NCBI GenBank assembly: GCA_017517845.1 | Contig: JAFWXW010000024.1 | Location: 1 to 47,178, forward strand | Source: Paludibacteraceae bacterium | GTDB lineage: Bacteria > Bacteroidota > Bacteroidia > Bacteroidales > Paludibacteraceae | Direction of reading: 5' to 3' | DNA length: 47,178 nucleotides | In this document: piece by piece, positions 1,746-44,195 of the stretch | How positions within the stretch are numbered: the stretch's first letter is position 1 | Layout: every line of letters begins with the position of its first letter | Notes under the pieces: model-generated | What the model was told of the DNA's origin: nothing | Seen by the model: the letters and a program-made list of their open reading frames with translations, nothing else | Database searches by the model: none | Translations under genes and position numbers: made by a program

Positions 1746-1760
1746 TTAAAGGGTAAATAC

Positions 1761-1799
1761 AAAAAAAACTGCTAGTCTATAAAGATTAGCAGTTTTTTT
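1761..1799 (+). terminator. Terminator between nhaC and the acyl-CoA ligase gene
   Basis: A 12-bp stem (AACTGCTAGTCT with AGATTAGCAGTT, one wobble pair) is flanked by A8 on the left and T7 on the right. It can therefore work in both directions for these convergent genes. Confidence 0.8.
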
Positions 1800-1814
1800 G
1801 TTCCTAAATAATTA

Positions 1815-3578
1815 TTATGCGAATAATTTATCTATGTTTTCTTTATAGAATTCTATAGCTTTATTACGTTTAACTTTTAGGGTAGGAGTTAGAAGACCAT
1901 TCTTTTGTGACCATTCATCTGGAACGATGTCAAATTTCTTAATTTTTTCGTAATCCCCTAATTCTACATTGTATTTATTCACTTCTTTTCTTAATCTAGC
2001 TATAACTTCTGGATTTTTTACTAAATCTTCTAGAGTTTTAAATTCTATTTTATGAATTTGTGCCCAAGATTTTAGATATTGTGCATTTGGAGAAATAATA
2101 GCTGCTGCAAATTTTTGGTTTTCACCTACAACCATGATATTATCAATGAATGGAGATTGAGCCATTTTTTCTTCTATTAAGAATGGGTTAATGTATTTAC
2201 CCATAGATGTTTTAAATATACTCTTGATACGACCTGTAATGGTAATGTGTCCGTTTTCATCTATAGTTGCAGTGTCGCCAGTGTGGAACCAACCATCTGC
2301 TTCAATGGCTTCTGCTGTTAAATCTGGGGCTTTGTAGTAACCTTTCATCACATTATGACCACGGCATAATAGTTCGTTAGTTTCTGGAACCAGTTTTACT
2401 TCGACTCCTTTGATAGGGCGACCTACTGTTCCTATTTTTCTACCTTTTTCTGAGCGGTCGTGAACACAGATAACTGGTGATGTTTCTGTTAATCCATATC
2501 CTTCAAATACTGGCATACCAATAGCAGAGAAGAATGAGGCTATTTCTGGACGTATAGCAGAACCTCCAGATACCACAACGTCCCATGTACCACCGATAGC
2601 TTCACGCCATTTTTTATAGATTAATTTATCTGCTAGTTTTAATTTTGCATTGTATGAAGCACTTCTTCCATCTATTTTGTATTGAAGTGCTAGGTTTAAT
2701 GCCCAATAATAAATAACTTTTTGAGCATATGGAAGTTTTTTGCCAGAGGCATATAGTTTATCATATATTTTTTCTAATAGGCGTGGAACGCAGGTCATAA
2801 TATTAGGATCAACTTCTTTAATATTATCTACGATAGTACCCATATTTTCTGCGTAGTAGATAGATATTCCTCTATATTGGTATAGATAGATAAGCATTTT
2901 TTCGTATGCGTGACACATAGGTAAGAAGCTTAATGCTCTGTAACAAGTTTCAGAAGGAACATGTTGCACTGCTAGGACTTGGTTTATAATATTTGAGTGA
3001 GCATGCATTACACCTTTGGGTTGACCCGTAGTTCCAGAAGTGTAAATGATACAACAAGTATCTTCTGGTGTAATACTACTTTTAATTTCTTCTAATTTTT
3101 TCAAATCTAGGTTTTCTTTTCCCATTTCTAGTAATTGAGATAGATAATGGTGACGACCGCGGTCAACGAATGTGTAGATACCTTTGAGACTTGGAACTGT
3201 AGGAAGAATATGTTCTATTTTTCTAAGTAGTTCTTCTCCTTCTGAGAATACGTATTTAACTTCTGCGTGATTAAGAATATAGTTATAATCTGATTCACTA
3301 ATAGTAGGGTAGATTGGTACTGTGATAGCACCAATTTGCATAATACCCATATCTAGAATATTGTATTCTGGGCGGTTTGAACTTATTATGGCTATTTTGT
3401 CTTCTTTTTTTACTCCTAATTTTAAAAGTGCAGAACTTACATAATTAGCTTTTTCTACATAGTCTTTGATGGAATAGTTAATCCATTTTCCTTCTCTTTT
3501 ACAAGATAGGGCAACTTCTTGATTAGGATAATTTTCTGTGTAGTGATCTAGTAGATCAAAAATTCTTTTTACTTCCAT
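1815..3578 (-). CDS. Long-chain acyl-CoA synthetase (AMP-forming)
   Basis: A 587-residue member of the adenylate-forming superfamily, similar to FadD15/FAA1-type long-chain fatty acid-CoA ligases. It activates fatty acids through an acyl-AMP intermediate before thioesterification to CoA. The AMP-binding P-loop YTSGTTGQPKG sits at about residues 175-190 and GYGLTETSP follows further on. The C-terminal region carries the hinge (TGDTATIDENGHITITGR) and a lysine-containing end (TPTLKVKRN). The reading frame is open 14 codons further upstream, to 3620. However, the -7 element at 3618-3625 puts transcription start inside that extension, so the ATG at 3578 is chosen. It is a single gene, convergent with nhaC. 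Confidence 0.9.
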   Translation of the reverse strand: MEVKRIFDLLDHYTENYPNQEVALSCKREGKWINYSIKDYVEKANYVSSALLKLGVKKEDKIAIISSNRPEYNILDMGIMQIGAITVPIYPTISESDYNYILNHAEVKYVFSEGEELLRKIEHILPTVPSLKGIYTFVDRGRHHYLSQLLEMGKENLDLKKLEEIKSSITPEDTCCIIYTSGTTGQPKGVMHAHSNIINQVLAVQHVPSETCYRALSFLPMCHAYEKMLIYLYQYRGISIYYAENMGTIVDNIKEVDPNIMTCVPRLLEKIYDKLYASGKKLPYAQKVIYYWALNLALQYKIDGRSASYNAKLKLADKLIYKKWREAIGGTWDVVVSGGSAIRPEIASFFSAIGMPVFEGYGLTETSPVICVHDRSEKGRKIGTVGRPIKGVEVKLVPETNELLCRGHNVMKGYYKAPDLTAEAIEADGWFHTGDTATIDENGHITITGRIKSIFKTSMGKYINPFLIEEKMAQSPFIDNIMVVGENQKFAAAIISPNAQYLKSWAQIHKIEFKTLEDLVKNPEVIARLRKEVNKYNVELGDYEKIKKFDIVPDEWSQKNGLLTPTLKVKRNKAIEFYKENIDKLFA

Positions 3579-3617
3579 ATATAATGTTTTTACAATATAA
3601 TTACAATTTATCGAGGA

Positions 3618-3625
3618 CAAAGATA
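3618..3625 (-). promoter_or_regulatory. -7 promoter element of the acyl-CoA ligase gene
   Basis: TATCTTTG on the minus strand matches TAnnTTTG, 40 bases before the ATG at 3578. It decides that start against an upstream in-frame ATG at 3620. Confidence 0.6.
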
Positions 3626-3645
3626 ATTATATTTATTGATATAAC

Positions 3646-3685
3646 TAAAAAAAATTGCACATTTTTTCAAAAAATGTGCAATTTG
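3646..3685 (-). terminator. Terminator of the ATP synthase operon
   Basis: A long perfect hairpin (AAATTGCACATTTTTT with its complement) is followed by T7 on the minus strand, 25 bases after the atpG stop. It closes the operon. Confidence 0.85.
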
Positions 3686-3707
3686 ATAGAAGAATTATAA
3701 TATTTAT

Positions 3708-4583
3708 TTAACTTCTAAGTGCTTCTGCACCACCTACAATATCTAATAGTTCATTTGTAATTACTTCTTGACGAGCTCTATTGTATTGTTGGGTTATGGC
3801 TTCTAACATATTATTTGCATTATCAGATGCTATTTGCATTGCAGTGGTTCTTGCTCCATGTTCTGCTGTATTAGAATCTATTAATGCAGCGTAGAAACGC
3901 ATACGCACTACCATAGGAACTAATGAGTTAATGAAAGTGTCTATATCTGGTTCTGTAAAGTATAGATATGATTTATTACTACTTTTGGTCTCTATAGTGT
4001 CTAATGGTAAATATGTTTCTGTGGTAGGAATTTGTACTCCTGCGTTTTTATGGTGGTTGTAAAGTAAGATTATTTTATCTATTTCTTTATTTAAGAATTT
4101 ATCTACAAGAGGTGAGATAAATTCTATAGCACCATCATAACTAGGTTTGGCAGAAAGTTCATCTATGCTACATTGAGCAATACGATTGGTCTTTTTGACA
4201 TAGTCTGAAATCTTTTTGCCAATAGGGTATATTAAAACATCTTTTTCTGGTAAATTAGAATATTCTTTTAGAGTATTTTCTAACAACTTATTGATGTTTG
4301 AATTGAATGTACCACATAATCCTGTGCATGAAGAAATACAAATGATAGCCACCCTTTTTACTTCACGTTTTTCTGCTAATGTAATATTTACCTTTTCTGG
4401 ATCTACAGAAGAAAGGTATTGTGTAAGCATATCACTTAATTTGTTCTTATAGGGAACAAATTTTAGTGTTGCTTCCTCAGATTTATGAAGTTTAGCAGCC
4501 GACACCATTTTCATAGCAGATGTCATCTTCTGGGTAGAACTAACAGATGCTATTCTAGCTCGTATTTCTTTTAAAGAAGCCAT
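3708..4583 (-). CDS. atpG: ATP synthase F1 subunit gamma
   Basis: This 291-residue protein is the rotor shaft of F1. The N-terminal helix (SLKEIRARIASVSSTQKMTSAMKMV) and the C-terminal helix (YNRARQEVITNELLDIVGGAEAL) are the two strands of the conserved gamma coiled coil. The middle is the Rossmann-like domain. It is the last gene of the operon, two bases after atpA, and is followed by a strong terminator. Length and ends are normal for the family. Confidence 0.97.
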   Translation of the reverse strand: MASLKEIRARIASVSSTQKMTSAMKMVSAAKLHKSEEATLKFVPYKNKLSDMLTQYLSSVDPEKVNITLAEKREVKRVAIICISSCTGLCGTFNSNINKLLENTLKEYSNLPEKDVLIYPIGKKISDYVKKTNRIAQCSIDELSAKPSYDGAIEFISPLVDKFLNKEIDKIILLYNHHKNAGVQIPTTETYLPLDTIETKSSNKSYLYFTEPDIDTFINSLVPMVVRMRFYAALIDSNTAEHGARTTAMQIASDNANNMLEAITQQYNRARQEVITNELLDIVGGAEALRS

Positions 4584-4585
4584 AC

Positions 4586-6169
4586 TTAGTTCTTATATTG
4601 ATTAGCTAATAATTTAGCCTCTTCTTTTAAGATGGTAGTAATTTCATCATTAATTACACCTTCTTTAAGAGGTTTTAATACTGTATCCTTATATTTTAAT
4701 TCAAGAATGTCTAAGAAATTCTTTTCAAATTCTGCTACTTTTTCTACAGGAACATCTGCTAATAAACCATTGGTTCCGCAGTAAATAATAGCAACTTGAT
4801 GTTCTGCTGGAAGCGGCGAATATCTGCCTTGTTTAAGAATTTCTACATTCTTAGCTCCTTTGTCTAGGATAATTTTGGTTGCTGCGTCTATTTCTGCACC
4901 AAATTTTGAGAATGCTTCCAACTCACGATATTGTGCTTGGTCTAGTTTAAGTGTACCTGCCACTTTTTTCATAGACTTGATTTGTGCAGAACCACCTACA
5001 CGAGACACAGAGATACCTACGTTGATAGCTGGACGAATACCTGCGTTGAATAGGTTAGATTCTAGGAATATCTGACCGTCTGTAATAGAAATTACGTTGG
5101 TAGGGATATATGCTGATACGTCACCTGCTTGAGTCTCAATAATAGGTAGAGCTGTGATTGAACCACCGCCTTTTACTTTACCTTTTAATGATTCTGGTAG
5201 GTCATTCATCTGACTTGCTACAGTATCATTGTTGATAACCTTGGCTGCACGTTCTAGCAGACGTGAGTGTAGGTAGAAAATATCACCTGGATATGCTTCA
5301 CGACCTGGTGGACGACGAAGGATAAGTGACACTTCACGATATGCTACAGCTTGTTTTGAAAGGTCATCATAAATGATTAGTGCGTGGCGACCTGTATCAC
5401 GGAAGTATTCTGCTATAGCTACACCTGCGTATGGAGCGTAGAATTGCATTGCTGCAGGGTCTGATGCTGTGGCAGAAATAACTATGGTATATTCCATAGC
5501 TCCGTTTTCTTCTAGTGTTTGGACTAGGTTTGCTATGGTAGAACCTTTTTGACCGATGCCTACATAAATACAATAAATAGGATTTCCATTTTTAAAGTTT
5601 TCCTTTTGGTTGATAATTGTATCTATTGCGATAGCAGTTTTACCTGTTTGACGGTCACCAATAATTAACTCACGTTGACCACGACCAATAGGAATCATAG
5701 CATCAATAGCTTTAATACCTGTTTGTAGTGGCTCTTTTACTGGTTGACGGAAAATTACACCTGGTGCTTTGCGTTCTAGAGGCATTTCAAAGGTTTCTCC
5801 CTTGATAGGACCTTTGCCGTCTAGTGGTTCACCTAGCATATTTATAACACGGCCTAACATGCCTTCACCTGCATTAATAGAGGCGATACGACCTGTTCTG
5901 CGTACAGTAAAACCTTCTTTAATTTCTTGAGTAGGGCCTAAAAGTACCACACCCACGTTATCTTCTTCAAGGTTTAAAACCACACCCATGATTCCGTTCT
6001 CAAATTCAACAAGTTCGTTTGATTGAACTTTGTTAAGTCCGAAAACACGAGCCACACCGTCGCTTACTTGAAGTACTTTGCTTATTTCCTCAAATTCGAG
6101 TTTATTTTTAAACCCATCTAGTTGCATTTGCAACACGCTTGAGATTTCGCTTGCTTTAATGTCCGGCAT
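4586..6169 (-). CDS. atpA: ATP synthase F1 subunit alpha
   Basis: This 527-residue protein is the non-catalytic nucleotide-binding subunit of the F1 hexamer. The P-loop GDRQTGKT lies at about residues 170-177, and the signature [11 protein letters not shown] and arginine-finger region [10 protein letters not shown] are present. The N-terminal beta-barrel ([11 protein letters not shown]) and C-terminal helical domain are complete. The start overlaps the end of atpH by 14 bases, a usual arrangement in a translationally coupled ATP synthase operon. Confidence 0.98.
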
Positions 6170-23013: not shown

Positions 23014-26000
23014 GTGAGTACAAAATTCTTCAACAATGGACTTGGTAATACGCTTTTTGATAAACTAAAGGGTATTGCATCAGAAATGACTTCATTTGAC
23101 CGCTTTTTAGCGGTTGTTGGTTTCTTCCGTTCTTCTGGTTACTTCAAACTTCGTAAAGAATTGGGTGATATATCTGAGATTAAAATATTAGTAGGTATTA
23201 ATATTGATGATATTTTCCGTAAGCACAATAAAGGTGTCTTAATGCTTGCTGATGCAGATAAGGCAAAAGAAATTTATGAGAAAGGATTTAAAGAAGATAT
23301 TCTCAATGCTCGATATGCCCCTGAAGTGGAAGAAGGTATTTTGCAAATGTGCGACGACCTAGTATCTGGACGTTTGCAGATGCGTATTCATGCCAACAAA
23401 AATCTACATGCCAAATTCTATTTATGTCTGCCTCAAAAACATACTGAACACAGCGATGGCTGGGTTATTATGGGTTCTTCTAATATTTCAGATGCTGGAC
23501 TAGGCATCAAACAGCCACCACAATATGAACTTAATGTGGCAATGAAAGATTATGATGATGTGAAGTATTGTACTGATGAATTTTGGACGCTATGGAACGA
23601 GGCTATCCAACTATCTGCAGAAGATATTGTTAAATACAAAAATAATACTCACATAGGCGACTATCAACCTACACCATACGAACTGTATATAAAAGTGTTG
23701 ATTGACACATTTGGTGACCAAGTTGAAGATGATTTTAATATTCAAATGCCAGATGGTTTCAAAGACTTGAAATACCAAAAAGATGCAGTTATTCAAGGGT
23801 ATCAGATGCTAATGCAACACAATGGCTTGTTCCTTGCCGATGTAGTAGGTTTGGGTAAAACCTTGATTGCTACCATGATAGCAAAACGTTTTATAGAAGC
23901 CAATGGAAAGAATACCAATATCTTAGTTGTGTCTCCTCCTGCCATAGAAGATAGCTGGGATAAAGCATTTAAGGATTTTAAAATAAGAAATAAAGTACAA
24001 ATTGTAACTAATGGTAGTTTGTCGAAAGTTCTTACTGGAAAAGATAATTTTAAAGATAAAGAGGAGTTTGATATAATAATTGTGGACGAGGCTCATGGTT
24101 TTCGTAGTGATAGTTCTGGAAAATACGATGATTTGCAAAAGATATGCAAATCACCTTGTATGAATATGGGTTTACTAAAAAGTACTCATAAAAAAGTGAT
24201 GCTTTTGTCTGCAACTCCATTAAATAACCGCCCTGAAGACTTACTTAACTTATTGCTTTTATTTCAGAATAGCCAAAATTGTACTATTGATGGGATTCCA
24301 AACTTAAAGGCATTTTTTGCTCCATTTATAGCGGACTATAAGAAATTGATGAAGGAACGTGATGAGCGCGATGTTACTGATGATGTAGATAAAATCTATG
24401 CACAAATAAGAAATAAGTTATTAGATAAAGTAACTATTCGTCGTACTCGTAATAATATTATAAATGACCCTGATTATAAAGAAGATATAACTAAACAAGG
24501 AATTGGGTTCCCTACAATCCTTCCTCCAAATGAATTGGAGTACTACATGGACGATGATACCAGAAATCGTTTTTATGATACTCTATGGCAATTAACCAAT
24601 GGTAAATCAGATAAAAATCCAGATGGAGATGGATTGAATTATGCTCGTTATCGTGCTGTGGAATTTTTAAAACCAGAATACCGCAATAAATACAAAAATG
24701 CAGTCCATGTGGGTCAATCGTTGGCTGGCATTTATAAAGTTCACATGGTAAAACGCTTGGAAAGTAGTTTTTATGCGTTTAAGAAATCACTGCAAACACT
24801 ACTTCGTATCACAGTGGATATGATAGATATGTTTAAAGAAGATAAAGTGATAATTGCACCCGAGTTGAATGTAAAAGAACTGCAAGCTAAAGGTTTGGAC
24901 TTGGATGAAATCATCGAATATGCCATTGCAAAAGGCTATGTAAAAGAAGATATTCTTTATCATTCTGATGCTTTTGAGCCTGAATTTCTTGAAATGCTTC
25001 AACACGATAAAGAAATTCTAATCAAACTAAATGAAGATTGGGAGCATGAGAATGATGATCCAAAATTTGATAAGTTCTACGAGAACTTTATGAATAAGTT
25101 CTTTGATGAGCGTATTAATCCTTCTGGCAAATTGGTATTATTTTCGGAAAGTGTAGATACATTAAAATACCTATACAAAAGATTAAAAGAAGATATAGGT
25201 CGCTCCGATGTACTTATGGTAACTGCATCAAATCGTGGTAATTTGGTGCAAACCATCAAAGAAAACTTTGATGCAAACTATGAGACAGACGCAAAAAAAT
25301 ATAACATAATCATAACTTCAGATGTACTAGCTGAAGGTGTAAACTTGCATCGTTCAAATGTGATAGTAAACTACGATTCACCTTGGAATGCGACCAGATT
25401 GATGCAAAGAATTGGTCGTGTAAATCGTATTGGTTCGGTCGCTCCAAATATCTACAATTTTATGTTTTACCCATCACAACAGGGTGATAATGAGATTCGT
25501 TTGTATAAAAATGCACTTGTAAAATTGCAAGGTTTTCACTCGGCGTATGGCGAGGATGCACAAATATTTTCTAGAGAAGAAATTGTAAAAGAGTTCAAAC
25601 TGTTTGACAGCAATGTTAAGGATAGCATCGATAAAAAGATTGCCCTGTTGCGTGAGGTGCGTGAACTTTATAATACCAACAGGGAACTTTATCACAAAAT
25701 AAAGAATCTTCCTATAAAAAGCCGTGTGATGCGTGAAAATAGCAAACACAGTGGCAAGTCTATAATATTTGTTTCTTCAAATCTAAAAACAGAATTTTAT
25801 TTGGCAGACTCAAAAGGAGTAGAGGTAATTGACTTCCTAGATGCTGTAAAATATTTGAAAGCAAAACCAGATGAAAAAGCATTGCCTTTTACCAATGCAG
25901 AAGAACACTACAAGCAGGTAAATATAGCCCTTGAAAAATATGAAACCGAGTACATAGAAGCTGCAGATGTATCTGTTTTGCATGCCAATCGTAAAGATTT

Positions 26001-26316
26001 AGACAAATCTTCGTTAATAGCCAATAAATTTTTGCGTACAATCAAACAAGTTGTTGACAATAAGGAATTGCATAGTATGTGTGATACCTTGACCACATAT
26101 ATCAATGAAGGTATTTATTCACAACTACCTAGATACTTAAAAGAATTGTCTGGTGAATACAAGAATGACCGAGCAAAAATAAAGCAAGATGAATCTAATC
26201 TGCAAAAAGAAATATCAGATTTGCTTAGTGAATACCAAACTATGAATAAAGAGCAAAGGCACGATGCGTTGAGTATTTCCGACCCGCAGATAGTGATTTC
26301 TGAAACTTTCGTATAA
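23014..26316 (+). CDS. PLD-domain SNF2-type helicase of a restriction-like defence system
   Basis: This 1100-residue protein has an N-terminal phospholipase-D-like nuclease domain with NLHAKFYL (His at about 131) and GSSNISDAGL (about 153). It is then a superfamily-2 motor: P-loop DVVGLGKT (about 276-283), DEAH box VDEAHGF (about 356), LLSATPLNNRP (about 396) and helicase-C QRIGRVNRIGS (about 800). PLD nucleases bind and cut nucleic acid through HKD-type motifs. The gene starts with GTG; no better ATG exists near the conserved start STKFFNNGLGNTLFDKLKG. It lies 37 bases before a large adenine methyltransferase gene, an association known from phage-restricting helicase-methylase systems. It resembles DISARM and similar systems but the other DISARM genes are absent. 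Confidence 0.8.
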   Translation: MSTKFFNNGLGNTLFDKLKGIASEMTSFDRFLAVVGFFRSSGYFKLRKELGDISEIKILVGINIDDIFRKHNKGVLMLADADKAKEIYEKGFKEDILNARYAPEVEEGILQMCDDLVSGRLQMRIHANKNLHAKFYLCLPQKHTEHSDGWVIMGSSNISDAGLGIKQPPQYELNVAMKDYDDVKYCTDEFWTLWNEAIQLSAEDIVKYKNNTHIGDYQPTPYELYIKVLIDTFGDQVEDDFNIQMPDGFKDLKYQKDAVIQGYQMLMQHNGLFLADVVGLGKTLIATMIAKRFIEANGKNTNILVVSPPAIEDSWDKAFKDFKIRNKVQIVTNGSLSKVLTGKDNFKDKEEFDIIIVDEAHGFRSDSSGKYDDLQKICKSPCMNMGLLKSTHKKVMLLSATPLNNRPEDLLNLLLLFQNSQNCTIDGIPNLKAFFAPFIADYKKLMKERDERDVTDDVDKIYAQIRNKLLDKVTIRRTRNNIINDPDYKEDITKQGIGFPTILPPNELEYYMDDDTRNRFYDTLWQLTNGKSDKNPDGDGLNYARYRAVEFLKPEYRNKYKNAVHVGQSLAGIYKVHMVKRLESSFYAFKKSLQTLLRITVDMIDMFKEDKVIIAPELNVKELQAKGLDLDEIIEYAIAKGYVKEDILYHSDAFEPEFLEMLQHDKEILIKLNEDWEHENDDPKFDKFYENFMNKFFDERINPSGKLVLFSESVDTLKYLYKRLKEDIGRSDVLMVTASNRGNLVQTIKENFDANYETDAKKYNIIITSDVLAEGVNLHRSNVIVNYDSPWNATRLMQRIGRVNRIGSVAPNIYNFMFYPSQQGDNEIRLYKNALVKLQGFHSAYGEDAQIFSREEIVKEFKLFDSNVKDSIDKKIALLREVRELYNTNRELYHKIKNLPIKSRVMRENSKHSGKSIIFVSSNLKTEFYLADSKGVEVIDFLDAVKYLKAKPDEKALPFTNAEEHYKQVNIALEKYETEYIEAADVSVLHANRKDLDKSSLIANKFLRTIKQVVDNKELHSMCDTLTTYINEGIYSQLPRYLKELSGEYKNDRAKIKQDESNLQKEISDLLSEYQTMNKEQRHDALSISDPQIVISETFV

Positions 26317-26353
26317 CAAACAACTAACTAACCTTAATCGTACATACTATAAA

Positions 26354-29300
26354 ATGGCCACAATATTTTCTGCAGAAGAATTGAGAACCATGTTCCAATC
26401 TTCTTTTAGCATGCAAACTTGGTACAATTGCTTGCAAAACTTATTCAATGCGAGTGAATTAAAAGTTACGCCAGAAAAGATAAACAATAGTACGTTAGAA
26501 AATGGCTATTACTTAGGTAATATCGATACGGTGGATCGTTACAGAATAGGCCTGTTTTATTATAAAATAACACAAGGTTCTGTGGCGAAGCGTAAAATAG
26601 GATTGCGCAACTTTGTGCGTTCATTTATCAATCCTACATGGGGTGAATTTGATGCTGCTTTGGTGGTATTTGATAGTGGTGACTTGTGGCGTTTATCGTT
26701 TATTTGTGATATAAAGGGAGAGGCAACCTCGCCTAAACGATATACGTACGTTTTTGGTAATCACGGGATTTTGTATAGAACTCCTATTGAGCGATTCCGT
26801 TTTTTACAAAACAAAGGAGTCTCTTTTGAGAACTTAAAAACAGCCTTCTCTGTAGAGGCACTTTCGGACGAGTTCTTTAATAGATATCGTGAACAGTATG
26901 CAGACTTTATTCAATATATCACAGGTAAACGTTTTATCAAAGTAGGCGGGAAATGGGAAGAAAAGGTGCTAGGGCTACCTAATGATTCTTTAATGCTGGC
27001 GTTTGAATTTAATGAAAAGAAAATACGCGATTACATTAAAAAGATGATGGGACGTCTTACTCTCTTGCATTTTTTACAGCGCAAGGGATGGTTGTGTGGT
27101 GATTTAAACTACCTACAAAACTTATTTGTGCGTTCTCAATACCAAGACGACTATTTGGATAATGTGTTGGAACCACTTTTCTTTGGTATTTTAAATACAA
27201 AACCAGAGGGCAGAAAACAAATATTTGAACAATATAATTGGGATTTAGCACTCTTAAAAGAGTGGGAGAGCATTCCCTATTTGAATGGAGGTTTATTTGA
27301 ACGTGACAAAGAAGATGAACCCGAAAGTAAATTCCCTGCCGATTATTTTAAACGATTATTCCAGTTCTTTAGTGAATATAACTTTACCATAGACGAGAAT
27401 GACCCTAACGATGCTGAGGTAGGGGTGGACCCAGAAATGTTGGGTAAAATCTTTGAGAACTTGCTGGAAGATAACAAGGACAAAGGTGCATTTTATACGC
27501 CCAAAGAGATTGTGCGTTATATGTGCCAAGAATCACTTATTGCTTATCTTGAAACCAATACTTCAATAGCAAAAGAAAAGATACGTCAGTTTGTACTTGT
27601 TCCAGACGAGAACGTTGAGGAGATACCAGAAAACAAAAGGTCTAAGTTGTTAGAAGCACTTAAAGATGTGAAGATTTGTGACCCAGCGATAGGTTCTGGA
27701 GCTTTTCCTATGGGTTTGTTGAATGAATTATTAAACTGCCGTGAAGCATTGGAGCATTTGGACGTGCCACGTTCTGAAATAAAGAAAAGTATTATTCAAA
27801 ATAATATTTATGGTGTAGATATAGAAAAAGGAGCGGTAGATATTGCTCGTCTGCGTTTTTGGCTTTCTATTGTGGTAGATGAAGAAAAAGCATCGCCATT
27901 GCCAAACTTAGACTATAAGATTATGCAAGGAAATTCACTTATAGAAAGTTATAAGGGGTTAGATTTGAGTAAACTTACTTATGAGAAGGAAGGTAAAAAA
28001 GATAGCGGTGAAGTAGAACTTTTTGATGATGAAAAGAAACAGATGCAAAAAAGATTGTCAATCTTGCTTTCTAAATATTATTCATGTTCAGATCACGATG
28101 AAAAGGAACGTATTAAGCAGGAAATCTTTGAAACCATTTATTTGCAATTAAAACAGTTGGCGTATTCAGATGCAATTCTCTCTGAACTAAAAAATATAAA
28201 CTTTGCCGAGAATAATCAGTTTTTCTTATGGCACACATGGTTTAGTGATGTCTTCAATCGCCCAAACGGCAAAAGTGGGTTTGATATAGTGATTGGGAAT
28301 CCGCCGTATGTGAATATTGCAAATATAAAGGACGAAACTCTACGAAAAACATACCAACAAAATTACAAAACTATAAAAAATAAAAGTGATTTATATAGCA
28401 TATTCACAGAAAGAGCTCATTGGTTGTTAGGAGAAAAAGGAATATGCTCATTTATTTTTTCAAATAGTTGGATGGGAACAGACAGTTTCTCTTTATTTAG
28501 AAAGTTCTTAGTTAATGAAACAAAAATTATAAAATTAATTGATTTACCAGATAGAGTTTTTGAAACAGCTCAAGTAAAAACATGTATTATTTTATTTGCC
28601 AAAGAAAAGATTGAAAATACCACGATTGTTTTATGTAACTATGATGGGTTACAATTTTCAACTTTGAACCATGTTTTAACATATAACAATATTAGGAAAT
28701 ATGAGAATTATCCTTTTTCGTTTGAACGAGGTATAGATTTGACAAAAATAAAGACTGTAACATTAGGTCAGATTGCTAAATTTTCTCTTGGAATTAAAAC
28801 AAGCAACGATAAAAAATTTATAAGTCATGAACCTTTTCTTGAGGATAATTATAAATTAATAAGAGGAAGAAATATTCAAAGATATAGTTATCCTATCAGT
28901 AACGAATGGATTTGGTATAGGCCTGATTTGTTTATGGAAAAAGCAGGTTCGGGGGCAAGAAAATTAGAATATTTTCTAACTGATACAAAAATTGTTATTC
29001 AAGATATTGGGACTGAAATTTGTGCAACTATTGATAGGAATAAGTTTTTATGTAATGATACTATAAATTTGATTTATCAGGTAGATAAGGATTATTCATT
29101 TGAATATGTATTGGGGTTGCTTAATTCAAAAACCATTAGATTCTGGCACAAAAAAGTATTTCCAGAGGGACTTCATATAAAAAAATACCAATTAATGGCA
29201 ATTCCTATTGCTGAAGTAGCATGTGATGTTCAATTTTCAATCGCCAGGTTAGTTTCTGAAGTTTTAGATAATAAGGTGTTAAATCCACGAGCAGATACAA

Positions 29301-29389
29301 CAGAATTAGAAAAACAAATAGACAAACTTATATATCGTATATATAATTTAACAGAAGAAGAAATTAAAATTATAGAAGAAAATATGTAA
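26354..29389 (+). CDS. Large N6-adenine DNA methyltransferase (Eco57I/TaqI class) of the defence pair
   Basis: This 1011-residue protein has methyltransferase motif I DPAIGSGAFPMGLL (about residue 441) and catalytic motif IV GNPPYVNI (about 648), the gamma-class signature of Eco57I-like enzymes. TPKEIVRYMCQESL introduces the domain. The roughly 350-residue N-terminal part contains FDAALVVFDSGDLWRLSF, common in this class and possibly a helper or nuclease region. The C-terminal 300 residues look like a TaqI-type target-recognition domain. Together with the upstream helicase it likely distinguishes self DNA by adenine methylation. The recognition site cannot be read from the sequence. Confidence 0.85.
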   Translation: MATIFSAEELRTMFQSSFSMQTWYNCLQNLFNASELKVTPEKINNSTLENGYYLGNIDTVDRYRIGLFYYKITQGSVAKRKIGLRNFVRSFINPTWGEFDAALVVFDSGDLWRLSFICDIKGEATSPKRYTYVFGNHGILYRTPIERFRFLQNKGVSFENLKTAFSVEALSDEFFNRYREQYADFIQYITGKRFIKVGGKWEEKVLGLPNDSLMLAFEFNEKKIRDYIKKMMGRLTLLHFLQRKGWLCGDLNYLQNLFVRSQYQDDYLDNVLEPLFFGILNTKPEGRKQIFEQYNWDLALLKEWESIPYLNGGLFERDKEDEPESKFPADYFKRLFQFFSEYNFTIDENDPNDAEVGVDPEMLGKIFENLLEDNKDKGAFYTPKEIVRYMCQESLIAYLETNTSIAKEKIRQFVLVPDENVEEIPENKRSKLLEALKDVKICDPAIGSGAFPMGLLNELLNCREALEHLDVPRSEIKKSIIQNNIYGVDIEKGAVDIARLRFWLSIVVDEEKASPLPNLDYKIMQGNSLIESYKGLDLSKLTYEKEGKKDSGEVELFDDEKKQMQKRLSILLSKYYSCSDHDEKERIKQEIFETIYLQLKQLAYSDAILSELKNINFAENNQFFLWHTWFSDVFNRPNGKSGFDIVIGNPPYVNIANIKDETLRKTYQQNYKTIKNKSDLYSIFTERAHWLLGEKGICSFIFSNSWMGTDSFSLFRKFLVNETKIIKLIDLPDRVFETAQVKTCIILFAKEKIENTTIVLCNYDGLQFSTLNHVLTYNNIRKYENYPFSFERGIDLTKIKTVTLGQIAKFSLGIKTSNDKKFISHEPFLEDNYKLIRGRNIQRYSYPISNEWIWYRPDLFMEKAGSGARKLEYFLTDTKIVIQDIGTEICATIDRNKFLCNDTINLIYQVDKDYSFEYVLGLLNSKTIRFWHKKVFPEGLHIKKYQLMAIPIAEVACDVQFSIARLVSEVLDNKVLNPRADTTELEKQIDKLIYRIYNLTEEEIKIIEENM

Positions 29390-29393
29390 AAAT

Positions 29394-30236
29394 ATGGAAA
29401 AATATTATCATTTCACATCAATTGACACGCTTTATAATATGTTGACAAGTTCACTTATAGTTGTTGATGATACAAATTGTAAGTACATAGAGTTTTGGGC
29501 AACTGGAATAAATGCTTTGAATGATACAACAGAACGTGATTTGTTTGTTAATGCTCTAATAAAAGAAGTTAGGCAATATGCTAATAACAAAGGAAATACA
29601 TTAACAAGTGAACAAGAAAAGGAATTAGGTAAACTTTGTTATACTGACTTATATGTAATATCATTAACTGGTAGCAACCTATCTGTTTCAGATGAGTTAA
29701 ATATGTGGCGTGGTTATGGAGGTAATGGGAGTGGAGTTTGTATAGAATTTGATTTTTCAAAGGTACAACCAATTAATCCTATTGGAATAAATGCATTTCA
29801 AATGGAAGATAAGTATATACTGCGTGAGTGTGAATATCTAATGCCTGAAGATATTACATTAAAACAAGACCTAATAATGCAGATTTACGATGCTTTGTTT
29901 ATCAATGAAAAAGATAATATGAAAACAACTGTATATATGGCTGGTATAATTGCCAGCATAGCAAAGTTATCTCCATATTATAAACATAAAGCGTATGAAT
30001 CAGAACATGAATGGAGAATTGTTAAACATTCTCTTGAACAACCAAAGTATAGGAAGCGTGGTGATTTAGTAATACCATATATTACATATCGTATCCCTGT
30101 TACTGCAATAACATCTGTAAAAATTGGTCCATGTATAAAGAGCACCTTTATAATTGATAATCTGGTAAGTTTTATTTATAGAAAACTTGGTCCAAATATA
30201 GAAATAAAATATTCAGATATTCCGTATAGAGGTTAA
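29394..30236 (+). CDS. DUF2971-like protein, third gene of the defence operon
   Basis: This 280-residue protein begins MEKYYHFTSIDTLYNMLTSS. It contains SVSDELNMWRGYGGNGSGVCIEFDF (about residues 95-122) and YESEHEWRIVKH (about 200-212), the three conserved blocks I associate with DUF2971. The opening HFTS, the ...GVCIEFD block and the closing EHEWRI recall the spaced His/Glu pattern of ADP-ribosyltransferase-like folds such as DarT, but this is inference. The gene begins four bases after the methyltransferase stop, so it is very probably co-transcribed and may be an effector of the system. No signal peptide. Confidence 0.65.
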   Translation: MEKYYHFTSIDTLYNMLTSSLIVVDDTNCKYIEFWATGINALNDTTERDLFVNALIKEVRQYANNKGNTLTSEQEKELGKLCYTDLYVISLTGSNLSVSDELNMWRGYGGNGSGVCIEFDFSKVQPINPIGINAFQMEDKYILRECEYLMPEDITLKQDLIMQIYDALFINEKDNMKTTVYMAGIIASIAKLSPYYKHKAYESEHEWRIVKHSLEQPKYRKRGDLVIPYITYRIPVTAITSVKIGPCIKSTFIIDNLVSFIYRKLGPNIEIKYSDIPYRG

Positions 30237-30599: not shown

Positions 30600-30818
30600 A
30601 TGAAAGATAAATACATGATTCCATACATCAATGCTTGCATAAGAGCTTTTGCAAAAAGATTTAGCCTCTCTGTGCGTAGTGCATTTGAATATCTTTATAG
30701 ATTTAAAGGTATAAGTTTTCTTGTGGAGTTTTATGATGTAATGCATCTGTCATCAATAGATGATGCAGTAGATGACCTAATCGTATGTTGTTTAAATAAT
30801 GGAGGAACACTTAAATGA
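30600..30818 (+). CDS. DUF3791-type small protein, probable antitoxin or accessory (intact module)
   Basis: A 72-residue protein. The segment RFKGISFLVEFYDVMHLSSI, the DDAVDDLI stretch and the ending NNGGTLK recur almost position by position in the second copy at 40467-40691 (RFNGLSHLTTYYDIIHTLSF, NGGKLK). I read it as the DUF3791 family. An ATG at 30579 is also possible, but comparison with copy 2 favours 30600. Its TGA overlaps the ATG of the next gene (ATGA), which implies translational coupling. Confidence 0.75.
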   Translation: MKDKYMIPYINACIRAFAKRFSLSVRSAFEYLYRFKGISFLVEFYDVMHLSSIDDAVDDLIVCCLNNGGTLK

Positions 30819-31285
30819 TACTATATCATGGCACGAATATTGATTTTGATACTATAAATCTTACTAAATCTCATAAATATAAAGATTTTGGTCAAGGTTT
30901 TTATTTAACAGATATTCGTAAGCAGGCTGAAGAATTAGCTTCTAAAAGATCTCGTCTTTTTGGTGGTTATCCTGTTATTCAAGAATATGAATTTGATGAA
31001 AAACTCTTGGAAGAAGGAGAATTACGTGTATTAAAGTTTGATAGACCATCAGAAGAATGGGCAGATTTTATATTTAAGAATCGTAATAGAGAAACTAATT
31101 ATATTCACGATTATGACATTGTAATAGGTCCTATTGCTGACGATGGTGTGGCTTATCTTTTGGGTCTTTATGATGAGGGGGTTATTAAAATAGGAGATTT
31201 AAGTAAACGGTTGGAATATAAAAATCTTAATAGACAATATTTTTTTGGAACAGAAAAATCTCTTAAATATTTAAAACGATTATGA
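30815..31285 (+). CDS. DUF3990 protein, ADP-ribosyltransferase-like; probable toxin
   Basis: This 156-residue protein starts MILYHGTNIDFDTINL and then has KDFGQGFYLTDIRKQAEELASKRS-like blocks typical of DUF3990. The His in YHGT (residue 5) and the Tyr in GFYLT (residue 30) sit where ADP-ribosyltransferases of the H-Y-E class bind NAD+. A C-terminal acidic residue for the third position is likely but not certain. It is coupled by ATGA overlaps to small genes on both sides. In the second copy of the module exactly this gene is gutted while the flanks remain, which is what one expects of the harmful component. The biochemical activity is inference. Confidence 0.75.
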   Translation: MILYHGTNIDFDTINLTKSHKYKDFGQGFYLTDIRKQAEELASKRSRLFGGYPVIQEYEFDEKLLEEGELRVLKFDRPSEEWADFIFKNRNRETNYIHDYDIVIGPIADDGVAYLLGLYDEGVIKIGDLSKRLEYKNLNRQYFFGTEKSLKYLKRL

Positions 31286-31503
31286 CAGAACAAGTAAAAA
31301 AGAATTATCTAGTTAGTCATATTGTGGATAGATTAACGGAATATCTTATTTTGGATAGGGATATAGAGTTAGTTGATGCACTAAAAATAGTATATCAATC
31401 TAAAACGTATCAATTATTACAAGATGAGGTAGGCGATTTATATAGCCAAAGTCCATCTTATATTTACGAGTTATTAAAAGAAGAGATAGATTTTGTTCGG
31501 TAA
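31282..31503 (+). CDS. Small DUF3990-associated protein (intact module, third gene)
   Basis: A 73-residue, largely helical protein. DALKIVYQSKTYQLLQDEVG and LYSQSPSYIYELLKEE match copy 2 (KAMDILYNSDTFARLQD, LYYQSPGYVYSFLNNE). I have seen this motif accompanying DUF3990 genes but know of no assigned function. It starts within the stop of the DUF3990 gene. It is probably an antitoxin partner or regulator; either it or the DUF3791 protein could neutralise the enzyme. Confidence 0.75.
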   Translation: MTEQVKKNYLVSHIVDRLTEYLILDRDIELVDALKIVYQSKTYQLLQDEVGDLYSQSPSYIYELLKEEIDFVR

Positions 31504-40440: not shown

Positions 40441-40448
40441 TATATTTG
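40441..40448 (+). promoter_or_regulatory. -7 promoter element of the second DUF3791 module
   Basis: TATATTTG, 18 bases before the ATG at 40467. It overlaps the TTG at 40446 and so excludes that as a start. Confidence 0.6.
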
Positions 40449-40466
40449 TTCAAGAAAATATATGTT

Positions 40467-40691
40467 ATGTCTAGAGAAGAAAGAAATAGATTAAACTATA
40501 CAATAGCATTGATAGCTGAGTTTGCAAGCAGATTTGGTATAGGCGAGAAACAGGCACATAATTATTTGTCACGTTTTAATGGCTTATCTCATCTGACTAC
40601 ATATTATGACATAATACATACACTATCATTTGATGATGCTGTTGATGCAATGATACAAGTATGTGAACATAATGGAGGAAAATTAAAATGA
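40467..40691 (+). CDS. DUF3791-type small protein (copy with deleted toxin gene)
   Basis: A 74-residue homologue of the protein at 30600-30818, with the shared FNGLSHLTTYYDIIHTLSFD, DDAVDAMI and HNGGKLK blocks. A TTG at 40446 in frame is part of the promoter, so ATG at 40467 is the start. The frame is intact, which indicates it is either still useful or recently orphaned. Its TGA overlaps the ATG of the deleted DUF3990 remnant exactly as in the intact module. Confidence 0.75.
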   Translation: MSREERNRLNYTIALIAEFASRFGIGEKQAHNYLSRFNGLSHLTTYYDIIHTLSFDDAVDAMIQVCEHNGGKLK

Positions 40692-40741
40692 TATTATATC
40701 ATGGTACTTCATTGGCTCTTGAAAAACTGAAAAGACTATGA
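40688..40741 (+). pseudogene. Internally deleted DUF3990 gene, 17 codons left
   Basis: The frame reads MILYHGTSLALEKLKRL and stops. The first seven residues equal the start of the intact DUF3990 protein (MILYHGT), and the last four with their preceding Leu-Lys equal its end (LKRL). About 140 codons are missing in between. Both ATGA overlaps with the flanking small genes are preserved, so the deletion was in frame or has been kept in frame. No catalytic Tyr or Glu remains. Confidence 0.8.
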
Positions 40742-40971
40742 AATTGACATCATCTCAAATAAAGATTATGCAAGAAGATATGTATGCAGACTTAATACAA
40801 CTTCTTATAGAAAGGCATGGATATACAGTAGAAAAAGCAATGGATATTCTGTATAATTCAGATACTTTTGCTCGATTGCAAGATGCAAATACTGGTTTAT
40901 ATTATCAAAGTCCTGGGTATGTATATTCATTTCTTAATAATGAACTTTGTCTTTGTGACTATAGAATATAA
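40738..40971 (+). CDS. Small DUF3990-associated protein (copy with deleted toxin gene)
   Basis: A 77-residue homologue of the 31282-31503 protein, with KAMDILYNSDTFARLQD and LYYQSPGYVYSFLNNE. The reading frame is complete and begins in the stop codon of the deleted gene. Function unknown; its retention together with the DUF3791 partner argues that neither is toxic. Confidence 0.75.
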   Translation: MKLTSSQIKIMQEDMYADLIQLLIERHGYTVEKAMDILYNSDTFARLQDANTGLYYQSPGYVYSFLNNELCLCDYRI

Positions 40972-42746: not shown

Positions 42747-44195
42747 TTATGAAAACAAATTCTCAAGGGTTATAACCTGTTGAAAAGCCCCGCTATACTC
42801 ATTATAAGCAAGTCCGTAAGTTGTTATGAGTGTGCTGTGAACTGCATACTTCCTTGGAAGTTTTTCGTGAATTTTGTTGACTCTGGATGCAATTTTTTTG
42901 TAAAAATCTCCACTCACAACGAAATCTTCGTTGTAGAACTTCATCTCACACATATTCACTACATTGTCATTTCGGTTGATAAGTAAATCTATCTGCATTC
43001 CAGACTCATCTTCATTACCAGGTACAATCCAATTTGATTGAGATGTTATAACTCCAGAAATACCCAGTGCACTCTTGATTTGTGGCATGTGTCTAATGCA
43101 AAGATCTTCAAATGCAATACCTCGCCAACTGACAACACTTTGAGCCAATTGATTGTTAGTCCAGAAATTTGTGTTGATGACGTTTTTTCCAGATACATAT
43201 TTAATATAGAATAAGCAGAACGGATCGATTAATCTGTAGTGATCTTCTCTTGTTGTCTTACCAAAAGGAGTATATCTCACAATAAAATCACTTGCAATTA
43301 AGGCATCAAGTAAGGTGCTAATGTCACCACCTTCTGCTAGTTCAAGTTTGGAAATTATTTCCTTTCTAGTAAATCCGCTATGGCGTGTTGCCAATAGTCT
43401 AATTATCTTCTTCATCACTTCGGGATTCTTGAATACCGAAGCAAAAAGACGGTCAAACTCGTTATGCAATTTTGGCTTCTGAGAAAAGAATAAATTGTCT
43501 ATATTCTGTGCGAGGCTGTTATGCTTGGTTAAATATCCAAGGTAGTATGGAATACCGCCAAGAATCATATTGCACTGCGCAATATCATATCGCGACATCT
43601 TGATTTCTTTGCTATGTAAGAAATCCTCTGTCTCTTTTAGCGTAAATGGCGACAACTTAATTTCGTAGGTTGTTCTTCCGTAAAGTCCTCCTGTATCATT
43701 AATTAGGTTATCCAAAATCCATGAGTTAGCGCTTCCGCACACTATTACCATAAGGTTGTCGCGGTGACAACCCCATGTATTCCAAAATGCCTCAAATGCA
43801 GTTAGGAATCCTGAGCGTGGAGTATCCAACCAAGGAAGCTCATCGAGAAATACTACTTGTCTATCTCCATTATCAATGTTGCTCAAATGTTGCTCAAGCA
43901 TAAAGAATGCATCCAACCAAGATGTCGGTTGTTTACTCTTCTTCATGCCATGCATTAACAATGAATGATAAAAGTGCTTCAACTGGTTTTTGAACATATT
44001 TTTTTTGCCAGAATCTTCGTTGTTTGGAGAGAGACCAGCATGTCTAAATGTGATTCTGCCCTTCAAGGCCTCATCTACCAAGAATGTCTTGCCAACTCTA
44101 CGTCTTCCATAAACAGCCACCATCTGTGCTTTGTTGCTGTTATACAAGTCATTCAACTCTTGAATTTCTTGTTTTCTACCAATTATATTTTCCAT
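42747..44195 (-). CDS. AAA+ ATPase with DUF234-type C-terminus
   Basis: This 482-residue protein starts with MENIIGRKQEIQEL and the P-loop VYGRRRVGKTFLVDE (about residues 28-42). Walker B is VVFLDELPWLDT (about 112) and the sensor is IVCGSANSWILD. A winged-helix region follows (about 270-320, ATRHSGFTRKEIISKLEL). The C-terminal domain has a D-(E)xK pattern, MQIDLLI and MCEMKFYNE, typical of DUF234 / PD-(D/E)xK-like folds. Such archaeal-type ATPases are common in gut Bacteroidales in many copies; the role is unknown. It has its own -7 element and is flanked by a 16-base direct repeat (42618, 44281), so it may be an insertion. Confidence 0.85.
   Translation of the reverse strand: MENIIGRKQEIQELNDLYNSNKAQMVAVYGRRRVGKTFLVDEALKGRITFRHAGLSPNNEDSGKKNMFKNQLKHFYHSLLMHGMKKSKQPTSWLDAFFMLEQHLSNIDNGDRQVVFLDELPWLDTPRSGFLTAFEAFWNTWGCHRDNLMVIVCGSANSWILDNLINDTGGLYGRTTYEIKLSPFTLKETEDFLHSKEIKMSRYDIAQCNMILGGIPYYLGYLTKHNSLAQNIDNLFFSQKPKLHNEFDRLFASVFKNPEVMKKIIRLLATRHSGFTRKEIISKLELAEGGDISTLLDALIASDFIVRYTPFGKTTREDHYRLIDPFCLFYIKYVSGKNVINTNFWTNNQLAQSVVSWRGIAFEDLCIRHMPQIKSALGISGVITSQSNWIVPGNEDESGMQIDLLINRNDNVVNMCEMKFYNEDFVVSGDFYKKIASRVNKIHEKLPRKYAVHSTLITTYGLAYNEYSGAFQQVITLENLFS

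What the first reader, a model, noticed from the sequence alone, without database searches (positions are those of the whole stretch)
40441..40971. A toxin-antitoxin-like triad whose middle gene has been cleanly gutted, leaving both partners and both ATGA couplings
Seen: 40467-40691 and 40738-40971 are homologous to the first and third genes of the intact operon at 30600-31503. Between them a 17-codon frame keeps the first seven residues (MILYHGT) and the last residues (LKRL) of the DUF3990 gene, with about 140 codons missing. Both ATGA overlaps survive. Inference: the ART-like DUF3990 protein is the toxic part, and the two small proteins were kept, perhaps as an anti-addiction or immunity pair against the intact copy. 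The deletion therefore acts as a natural experiment assigning roles.
Basis: partly seen in the sequence, partly recalled or inferred. Interest (0 to 1): 0.78.

Follow-up and report, generated by a model that had tools for sequence, protein, structure and literature searches.

The report
Toxin-antitoxin operon that lost its toxin
A three-gene bacterial operon that looks like a toxin-antitoxin system has lost its predicted toxin gene through a small in-frame deletion, and related gut bacteria show that this middle gene is lost often while its small partner genes are almost always present where it is intact.

Summary
At 40467-40971 a DUF3791 gene and a PDC-M13C-type gene flank a 17-codon frame (MILYHGTSLALEKLKRL), with ATGA overlaps at both junctions. 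A same-genus genome has an open DUF3990 frame ending ...FFGTSLALEKLKRL, then an 86%-identical third gene. The short frame is therefore derived: about 142 codons went between two short matching sites (YHGT, FFGT) in one reading frame, so clean coupling needs no selection.

It is not unique. About a quarter of DUF3791 loci in relatives lack an intact DUF3990: 18 of 69 in 101 genomes, 31 of 130 in a capped family-wide listing. One in another genus shows the same YHGT/FGT deletion. All 140 gene-1-anchored loci with intact DUF3990 also have gene 3; 24 of 48 loci without it do. This fits DUF3990 (invariant H-Y-Q, ADP-ribosyltransferase-like) being the toxic part.

Toxicity was not tested.

The parts
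40467..40691 (+). Gene 1 of the gutted triad: DUF3791 protein, 74 aa, intact; probable antitoxin part
   Evidence: Pfam PF12668 E 3.9e-18; PADLOC PDC-M13A 4.3e-23; 75% identical to gene 1 of intact triad L109
40688..40741 (+). 17-codon remnant of the DUF3990 gene (MILYHGTSLALEKLKRL); keeps the HGT motif and the last residues, lacks the invariant Y and Q
   Evidence: Sequence; C-terminal part identical to the open DUF3990 frame of G013 (L049:1-411); conserved residues
40702..40707 (+). TGGTAC at the deletion junction: start-side site (YHGT) joined to end-side site (FFGT); about 3-6 nt of shared sequence, exact length unknown
   Evidence: The DNA match to G013 begins at 40702; end-side site ttTGGTACa in L049; the two sites of L109 share TGG only
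40738..40971 (+). Gene 3 of the gutted triad: PDC-M13C-type small protein, 77 aa, intact; probably paralogous to DUF3791
   Evidence: PADLOC PDC-M13C 1.1e-16; 86% identical to gene 3 of G013; profile comparison with gene 1, E 7.6e-6, probability 84%
30600..30818 (+). Gene 1 (DUF3791) of the intact triad
   Evidence: Pfam 8e-20; PDC-M13A 1.5e-26
30815..31285 (+). Gene 2 (DUF3990, predicted ADP-ribosyltransferase-like toxin) of the intact triad, 156 aa, with H5, Y30, Q141
   Evidence: Pfam DUF3990 3.6e-49; ART-PolyVal 2.2e-5, below its cut-off; PDC-M13B 2.2e-50; invariant residues
31282..31503 (+). Gene 3 (PDC-M13C type) of the intact triad
   Evidence: PADLOC 4.4e-16
23014..30236 (+). Defence-type neighbours of the intact triad: HKD/SNF2-type helicase, type IIG-like methyltransferase, DUF2971 (weakly PDC-S31) protein
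   Evidence: PADLOC and Pfam hits
42747..44195 (-). PDC-S27 ATPase near the gutted triad (context only)
   Evidence: PADLOC 2e-193

Best explanation
The locus is a disarmed toxin-antitoxin-like triad of the PDC-M13 kind (DUF3791 - DUF3990 - M13C). SHOWN by comparison: relatives carry an open DUF3990 gene between the same two partners, and here about 142 codons between YHGT near its start and FFGT near its end are gone, leaving a 17-codon in-frame stub and both ATGA couplings. SHOWN: DUF3990 is broken or absent at about a quarter of DUF3791 loci in related genomes, while intact DUF3990 in those genomes almost always has its partner genes. INFERRED: DUF3990 is an ADP-ribosyltransferase-type toxin (invariant H-Y-Q) and the two small, probably paralogous proteins together hold it in check. 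Losing a partner first would then be harmful and is hardly seen; losing the toxin first is tolerated, after which the partners drift towards loss. INFERRED: the deletion arose by ordinary pairing of short repeats, and the preserved couplings follow from the repeats sharing one reading frame. The remaining pair most probably has no lasting role, though it may still be expressed and able to bind its lost toxin.
For: Same-genus relative with identical C-terminus and 86%-identical gene 3; complete triads L109-L111 with 78-82%-identical gene 3. Recurrent loss: 18 of 69 first-gene loci in 101 genomes, 31 of 130 uncensored loci of a capped listing from 358 genomes. Same YHGT/FGT in-frame deletion (420 nt) in L162 against L157, another genus. 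Five different deletions in one cluster of related operons. Gene 3 in 140 of 140 gene-1-anchored loci with intact DUF3990 (133 downstream, 7 upstream or fused) against 23 of 48 lost loci near gene 1, P 3.6e-18 without correction for relatedness; L130 keeps gene 3 beyond an insertion, making 24. Gene 3 and gene 1 domains fused in one protein before DUF3990 on conjugative plasmid pBF9343, near a zeta toxin gene, and in PDC-M10B proteins after DUF3990. In viral contig L285 DUF3791 is fused to a helix-turn-helix domain (HTH_3 3.5e-12, DUF3791 6.5e-13) directly before DUF3990, an architecture usual for antitoxins ('usual' recalled). H5, Y30, Q141 invariant in 57 of 57 aligned proteins, matching the HY-[E,D,Q] triad described for CmdT (PMC11618068, passages).
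Against: No toxicity or neutralisation data. CmdT alone was not toxic, apparently for lack of folding without CmdA, so partners being present could partly mean that they are needed to make DUF3990. Most loci were found through DUF3791, so gene 1 is present in the 140 by construction; loss of gene 1 is tested only by the DUF3990 list of 101 genomes. In 33 more distant DUF3990 loci of viral contigs my models find both partners in 14, gene 3 alone in 4, gene 1 alone in 1 and neither in 14; the models miss some (L278 has DUF3791 by Pfam), and 10 of those last 14 have an unassigned 66-181 aa gene just downstream, but a partner of this kind is not shown there. Most genomes are probably MAGs; an assembly error at this deletion cannot be excluded without reads. 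dN/dS shows no clear relaxation in genes 1 and 3, which also fits continued function.
Confidence: 0.75

Rival explanations
1. The two small proteins are maintained by selection as a toxin-less immunity (anti-addiction) pair that neutralises DUF3990 toxins from the genome's own intact operons or from incoming plasmids.
For: Both genes are open and show low dN/dS (window gene 3 against G013 0.149; pooled pN/pS of lost loci 0.204 for gene 1 and 0.105 for gene 3, intervals overlapping those of intact loci). DUF3990 modules ride on Bacteroidales plasmids (75 plasmid records of all taxa with a DUF3990 match, 28 of the 75 typed conjugative). 11 of 14 genomes with a lost copy also hold an intact one.
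Against: Losses do not persist: 42 changes for 48 lost tips, shuffles 43.2, only 3 all-lost pairs. Half of the lost loci have no full gene 3. In-genome paralogues are distant. Multi-copy genomes would show lost and intact copies together anyway.
Confidence: 0.15
2. DUF3990 is not toxic; it is an accessory enzyme of a phage-defence module that is lost when not needed, while DUF3791 and gene 3 have an independent house role.
For: PADLOC lists the family only as a phage-defence candidate (PDC-M13); about a quarter of DUF3791 loci lack intact DUF3990; distant viral DUF3990 loci often lack recognisable partners.
Against: In the 101 genomes intact DUF3990 lacks a gene 1/gene 3-type partner in 1 of 54, and gene 3 is missing in half of the loci once DUF3990 is gone, which a house role would not predict. 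DUF3990 also forms part of the C-terminal domain of a T6SS Rhs protein with a downstream gene predicted to encode immunity in Serratia (PMC4524185, passage; no test of that pair seen).
Confidence: 0.12
3. The deletion at 40.7 kb is an assembly or strain-mixture artefact of this genome.
For: The genome is 81% complete in 38 contigs, and no reads are available.
Against: The junction is in frame and has the same architecture as a separate deletion in another genome (L162). Repeats of 3-6 nt are too short to make an assembler collapse (general knowledge), and many other losses of DUF3990 exist.
Confidence: 0.04

Closest known systems
PDC-M13 / PDC-M10 phage-defence candidates (PADLOC-DB)
   Same: Component models match gene 1, DUF3990 and gene 3; the M10B model (147 positions) matches gene 1 in its first half and gene 3 in its second
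   Different: The window's second locus lacks the DUF3990 component; most PDCs lack experimental validation (PMC12988326, passages)
CmdTAC toxin-antitoxin-chaperone system
   Same: Three-gene module with an HY-[E,D,Q] ADP-ribosyltransferase and two partners (PMC11618068, passages)
   Different: No SecB-like chaperone found here: the partners are two short, probably paralogous proteins; the target is unknown
Orphan antitoxins of type II/IV TA systems
   Same: Antitoxin genes left without toxin are common, many in contexts that point to degraded pairs (Klebsiella: 2253 orphans; PMC7192599, passages)
   Different: Here two partner genes flank the lost gene, and the lost gene is a predicted ART
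Chromosomal CcdA as anti-addiction antitoxin
   Same: A chromosomal antitoxin can neutralise a plasmid toxin (review PMC7354431, passages)
   Different: No evidence of cross-neutralisation here, and low identity to in-genome paralogues
DUF3990 in the C-terminal domain of the T6SS protein Rhs5 of Serratia
   Same: Same Pfam domain, with a predicted immunity gene downstream (PMC4524185, passage)
   Different: Secreted polymorphic toxin, not a small operon

Membership tests
PDC-M13 (PADLOC) | Gene 1 of the DUF3791 / M13A kind | tested here: met
   4.3e-23 for 40467-40688 and 1.5e-26 for 30600-30815
PDC-M13 (PADLOC) | DUF3990 component present | tested here: not met
   Met at 30815-31285 (2.2e-50); at the finding only a 17-codon stub is left, so the locus is a remnant, not a member
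PDC-M13 (PADLOC) | Gene 3 of the M13C kind | tested here: met
   1.1e-16 and 4.4e-16
ADP-ribosyltransferase superfamily (for intact DUF3990) | H-Y-[E/D/Q] catalytic triad | tested here: met
   H5, Y30, Q141 invariant in 57 of 57 and in 133, 134 and 134 of 134; that these residues are catalytic is inferred
ADP-ribosyltransferase superfamily (for intact DUF3990) | ART fold | not testable with these tools
Toxin-antitoxin module | Toxic protein neutralised by a co-encoded partner | not testable with these tools
   Only genomic asymmetry and domain fusions
TAC systems such as CmdTAC | SecB-like chaperone gene | tested here: not met
   No SecB match in Pfam up to E 1 for the four small proteins of the window's triads
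Orphan antitoxin | Antitoxin-family genes without intact toxin | tested here: inconclusive
   DUF3990 reduced to 17 codons: met; the antitoxin role of genes 1 and 3 is inferred

The most novel reading that the evidence does not exclude
DUF3791-DUF3990-M13C operons are prone to disarming: short repeats coincide with conserved features (HGT near the start and FGT near the end of the toxin, or the ATGA overlaps at both gene borders), so a single slip can remove the toxin cleanly and leave a coupled two-gene neutraliser. Bacteria under repeated plasmid-borne DUF3990 addiction would turn operons into such pairs again and again and use them for a time as vaccination-like immunity.
Probability: 0.12. 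Interest if true: 0.72.

Novelty: new member of a known kind. Interest (0 to 1): 0.5.

Why it matters
PDC-M13 is reported as abundant in rumen genomes (3324 occurrences in PMC13356809, passage). In the held library 4 papers name DUF3990 and 1 names DUF3791, with no overlap, and one search found none combining them with related terms; so I found no functional study of the pair there. The recurrent, one-sided loss gives a testable role assignment: DUF3990 as the toxic enzyme, DUF3791 plus gene 3 as a joint restraint. It also supplies natural loss alleles; one architecture appears in two genera.

Tried and rejected
Rejected: 'the short frame is ancestral' (open DUF3990 in the same genus). Rejected: 'gene 3 is dispensable, since 7 of 140 intact loci lack it downstream': in those 7 gene 3 lies upstream, in one frame with gene 1 in 5 and separate in 2. 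Rejected: 'several intact DUF3990 genes lack partners': G024 has the permuted order DUF3990-gene 3-gene 1 at two loci; G036:C149 and G056:C133 carry a downstream PDC-M10B protein (3.7e-61, 7.2e-59); G056:C179 is cut by its contig end; G050:C9 has a different downstream protein and stays as the one exception.

Weak or without result: gene 3 in viral contigs (none). Distant viral DUF3990 loci: neither partner recognised in 14 of 33; of these 14, 10 have an unassigned small gene just downstream, and three such genes tested have no Pfam or PADLOC family. dN/dS could not date the deletion or exclude selection after it. NCBIfam had no relevant model. PDB sequence search found nothing significant. 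In one search the L194/L187 pair gave no breakpoint, and the breakpoints of the more distant pairs are rough.

Counting notes: the 192 gene-1 loci (distinct by sequence) include loci fetched by similarity to gene 3 (among L109-L117), so rates are quoted only from the 101-genome list (10 of 79 rows dropped: 5 third genes, 5 fragments) and from the 132 listed family loci that lie outside that set (listing cut by the tool, best scores first; 2 of 132 censored by contig ends). 'Lost' includes frameshifts and internal stops. Some gene-1-only loci have no recognisable DUF3990 remnant, so their former partner is inferred.

Full report
What is there. The first and third genes match PADLOC models PDC-M13A (4.3e-23) and PDC-M13C (1.1e-16), and the first matches Pfam DUF3791 (3.9e-18). 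The intact operon at 30600-31503 matches all PDC-M13 components and lies beside an HKD/SNF2-type helicase, a type IIG-like methyltransferase and a DUF2971 protein. The genome is 81% complete, with five DUF3990 genes and six DUF3791 first genes. Of 10 named relatives of gene 3, 9 are labelled with Bacteroidales taxa, 3 of them Paludibacteraceae, and 6 come from cattle, deer, goat or horse gut.

The short frame is derived. A genome of the same genus (G013) has gene 3 at 86% amino-acid identity, preceded by an open DUF3990 frame ending QYFFGTSLALEKLKRL. The DNA match to the window starts at the junction, 40702. G013's contig begins inside DUF3990, so its start-side sequence is not known. Three further relatives (L109-L111) have complete triads with DUF3990 starting M(K/R)LYHGS and ending FFGT(P/S)LALSKL... 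Against the 159-aa DUF3990 of L109, 142 codons are missing. The start and end sites share TGG in L109 and would share up to TGGTAC if the ancestor had HGT with the codons seen in the window. Both sites are in one reading frame, so a slip between them keeps the frame and both overlaps.

It recurs. In 101 genomes (the window's own included), 18 of 69 first-gene DUF3791 loci have no intact DUF3990. Among 132 further loci in the capped listing of a 358-genome family search, 31 of 130 uncensored ones do not. Junctions vary. L162 has a 17-codon frame, MILYHGTERTIKLLKKL, from a 420-nt in-frame deletion against L157: the same YHGT/FGT architecture as the window, in another genus. L209 lost DUF3990 exactly, between two ATGAAAC copies at the starts of genes 2 and 3. 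In L142 gene 1 now overlaps gene 3 by ATGA. L184 keeps a 5-codon stub. In one cluster of operons of genus g21 (gene 1 at least 85% identical), 2 loci are intact and 5 carry five different deletions.

The asymmetry. Of 192 distinct gene-1 loci, 140 have DUF3990 intact (at least 130 model positions in one open frame). Gene 1 is present in these by construction. All 140 also have a gene-3 domain, 133 downstream and 7 upstream or fused. Of 48 loci with broken or absent DUF3990, 23 have a full gene 3 near gene 1 (Fisher P 3.6e-18, not corrected for relatedness), one more (L130) keeps it beyond an insertion, and 4 have a fragment. The test for gene 1 uses the DUF3990 list of 101 genomes: of 55 intact genes, one is cut by a contig end, 49 have DUF3791 upstream, 2 have genes 3 and 1 downstream, 2 have a downstream PDC-M10B protein, and 1 has another protein. 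Loss is thus one-sided, 18 of 69 against 1 of 54 (P 1.1e-4). A single deletion of genes 2 and 3 together explains part of the missing gene 3s; it does not explain why no intact locus of this set lacks one.

Further signs that genes 1 and 3 work together as restraint. They are probably paralogous (profile comparison E 7.6e-6, probability 84%). On the conjugative plasmid pBF9343 they are fused in one 149-aa protein directly before DUF3990, with a zeta toxin gene two genes on; in PDC-M10B proteins they follow it in one chain. In the viral contig L285 DUF3791 is fused to a helix-turn-helix domain directly before DUF3990, as in many antitoxins (recalled). Against a universal rule: of 33 mostly distant DUF3990 loci in viral contigs my models find both partners in 14, one in 5 and none in 14. 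L278, counted as lacking gene 1, does have DUF3791 by Pfam, so the models under-detect; 10 of the 14 have an unassigned small gene just downstream.

Enzyme type. DUF3990 belongs to the Pfam ART clan (PMC7955679, passage). In 57 aligned proteins H5, D24, G26, F29, Y30, R90, D101, G105, A108, D110 and Q141 are invariant. H-Y-Q fits the HY-[E,D,Q] triad described for CmdT (PMC11618068, passages). The 17-codon stub keeps the H and lacks the Y and Q. The fold could not be predicted.

Is the remaining pair kept? The lost state is scattered over the gene-1 tree (190 tips, 42 changes for 48 lost; 1000 shuffles mean 43.2, sd 2.1; 3 all-lost pairs). The tree rests on about 68 residues and is weak. Lost states thus seem rarely to outlast speciation. 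Pooled pN/pS at dS 0.01-1 is 0.204 (95% 0.068-0.384, 21 pairs) for gene 1 of lost loci against 0.114 (0.073-0.156, 79 pairs) for intact, and 0.105 (9 pairs) against 0.146 (80 pairs) for gene 3. At dS below 0.3 lost loci are slightly higher for both (0.056 against 0.038; 0.094 against 0.046), with overlapping intervals. That fits recent loss or continued selection. Window gene 3 against G013 has dN/dS 0.149, above the 0.03-0.08 of intact pairs L109-L111, yet it is no further in nonsynonymous change from L109 than the intact G013 copy is (0.135 and 0.149). The in-genome paralogues share 21-48% with the pair (4 of 5 measured). 11 of 14 genomes with a lost copy have an intact one too, but multi-copy genomes would show this anyway. 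I read the pair as a young, probably transient remnant and give lasting immunity 0.15.

Known context. PDC-M13 is a candidate system, abundant in rumen genomes (PMC13356809, passages); most PDCs are unvalidated (PMC12988326, passages). Orphan antitoxins are common (PMC7192599, passages), and anti-addiction was shown for CcdA (PMC7354431, passages). Of the 4 papers naming DUF3990 I saw passages of two and listings of the others; of the one naming DUF3791 only the listing.

Noticed in passing
L130 (G006:C78:600-7600), 1457-5440: A DUF3990 gene is split by about 4 kb holding a transposase that looks IS1595-like and restriction-modification-like genes (names from reading the translations, not from a library search).
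   Followed up: partly
L310 (pBF9343), 3555-5615: Conjugative Bacteroides plasmid with a gene-3/gene-1 fusion, DUF3990, an 86-aa protein and a zeta toxin gene in a row; 75 plasmid records match DUF3990, 42 of them Bacteroides.
   Followed up: partly
L285 (IMG/VR contig), 2092-3271: Helix-turn-helix plus DUF3791 fusion directly before DUF3990, followed by a 68-aa gene of no known family.
   Followed up: partly
L121 (G070:C215:3700-6152), 2004-2171: A short in-frame DUF3990-like ORF with N- and C-terminal ends but no middle, about 800 nt after a lone DUF3791 gene: possibly another gutted copy, in another family.
   Followed up: no
L122, L125, L208: Three further gene 1 - stub - gene 3 loci whose stubs (36, 33 and 17 codons) keep the YHG start; two share a QICI-like piece.
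   Followed up: no
L119, L127, L281-L284: Permuted order DUF3990 - gene 3 - gene 1 in two loci of one genome and in four IMG/VR contigs.
   Followed up: partly
window 42747-44195: PDC-S27-type ATPase (PADLOC 2e-193) about 1.8 kb from the gutted triad, so both triads lie near defence candidates.
   Followed up: no
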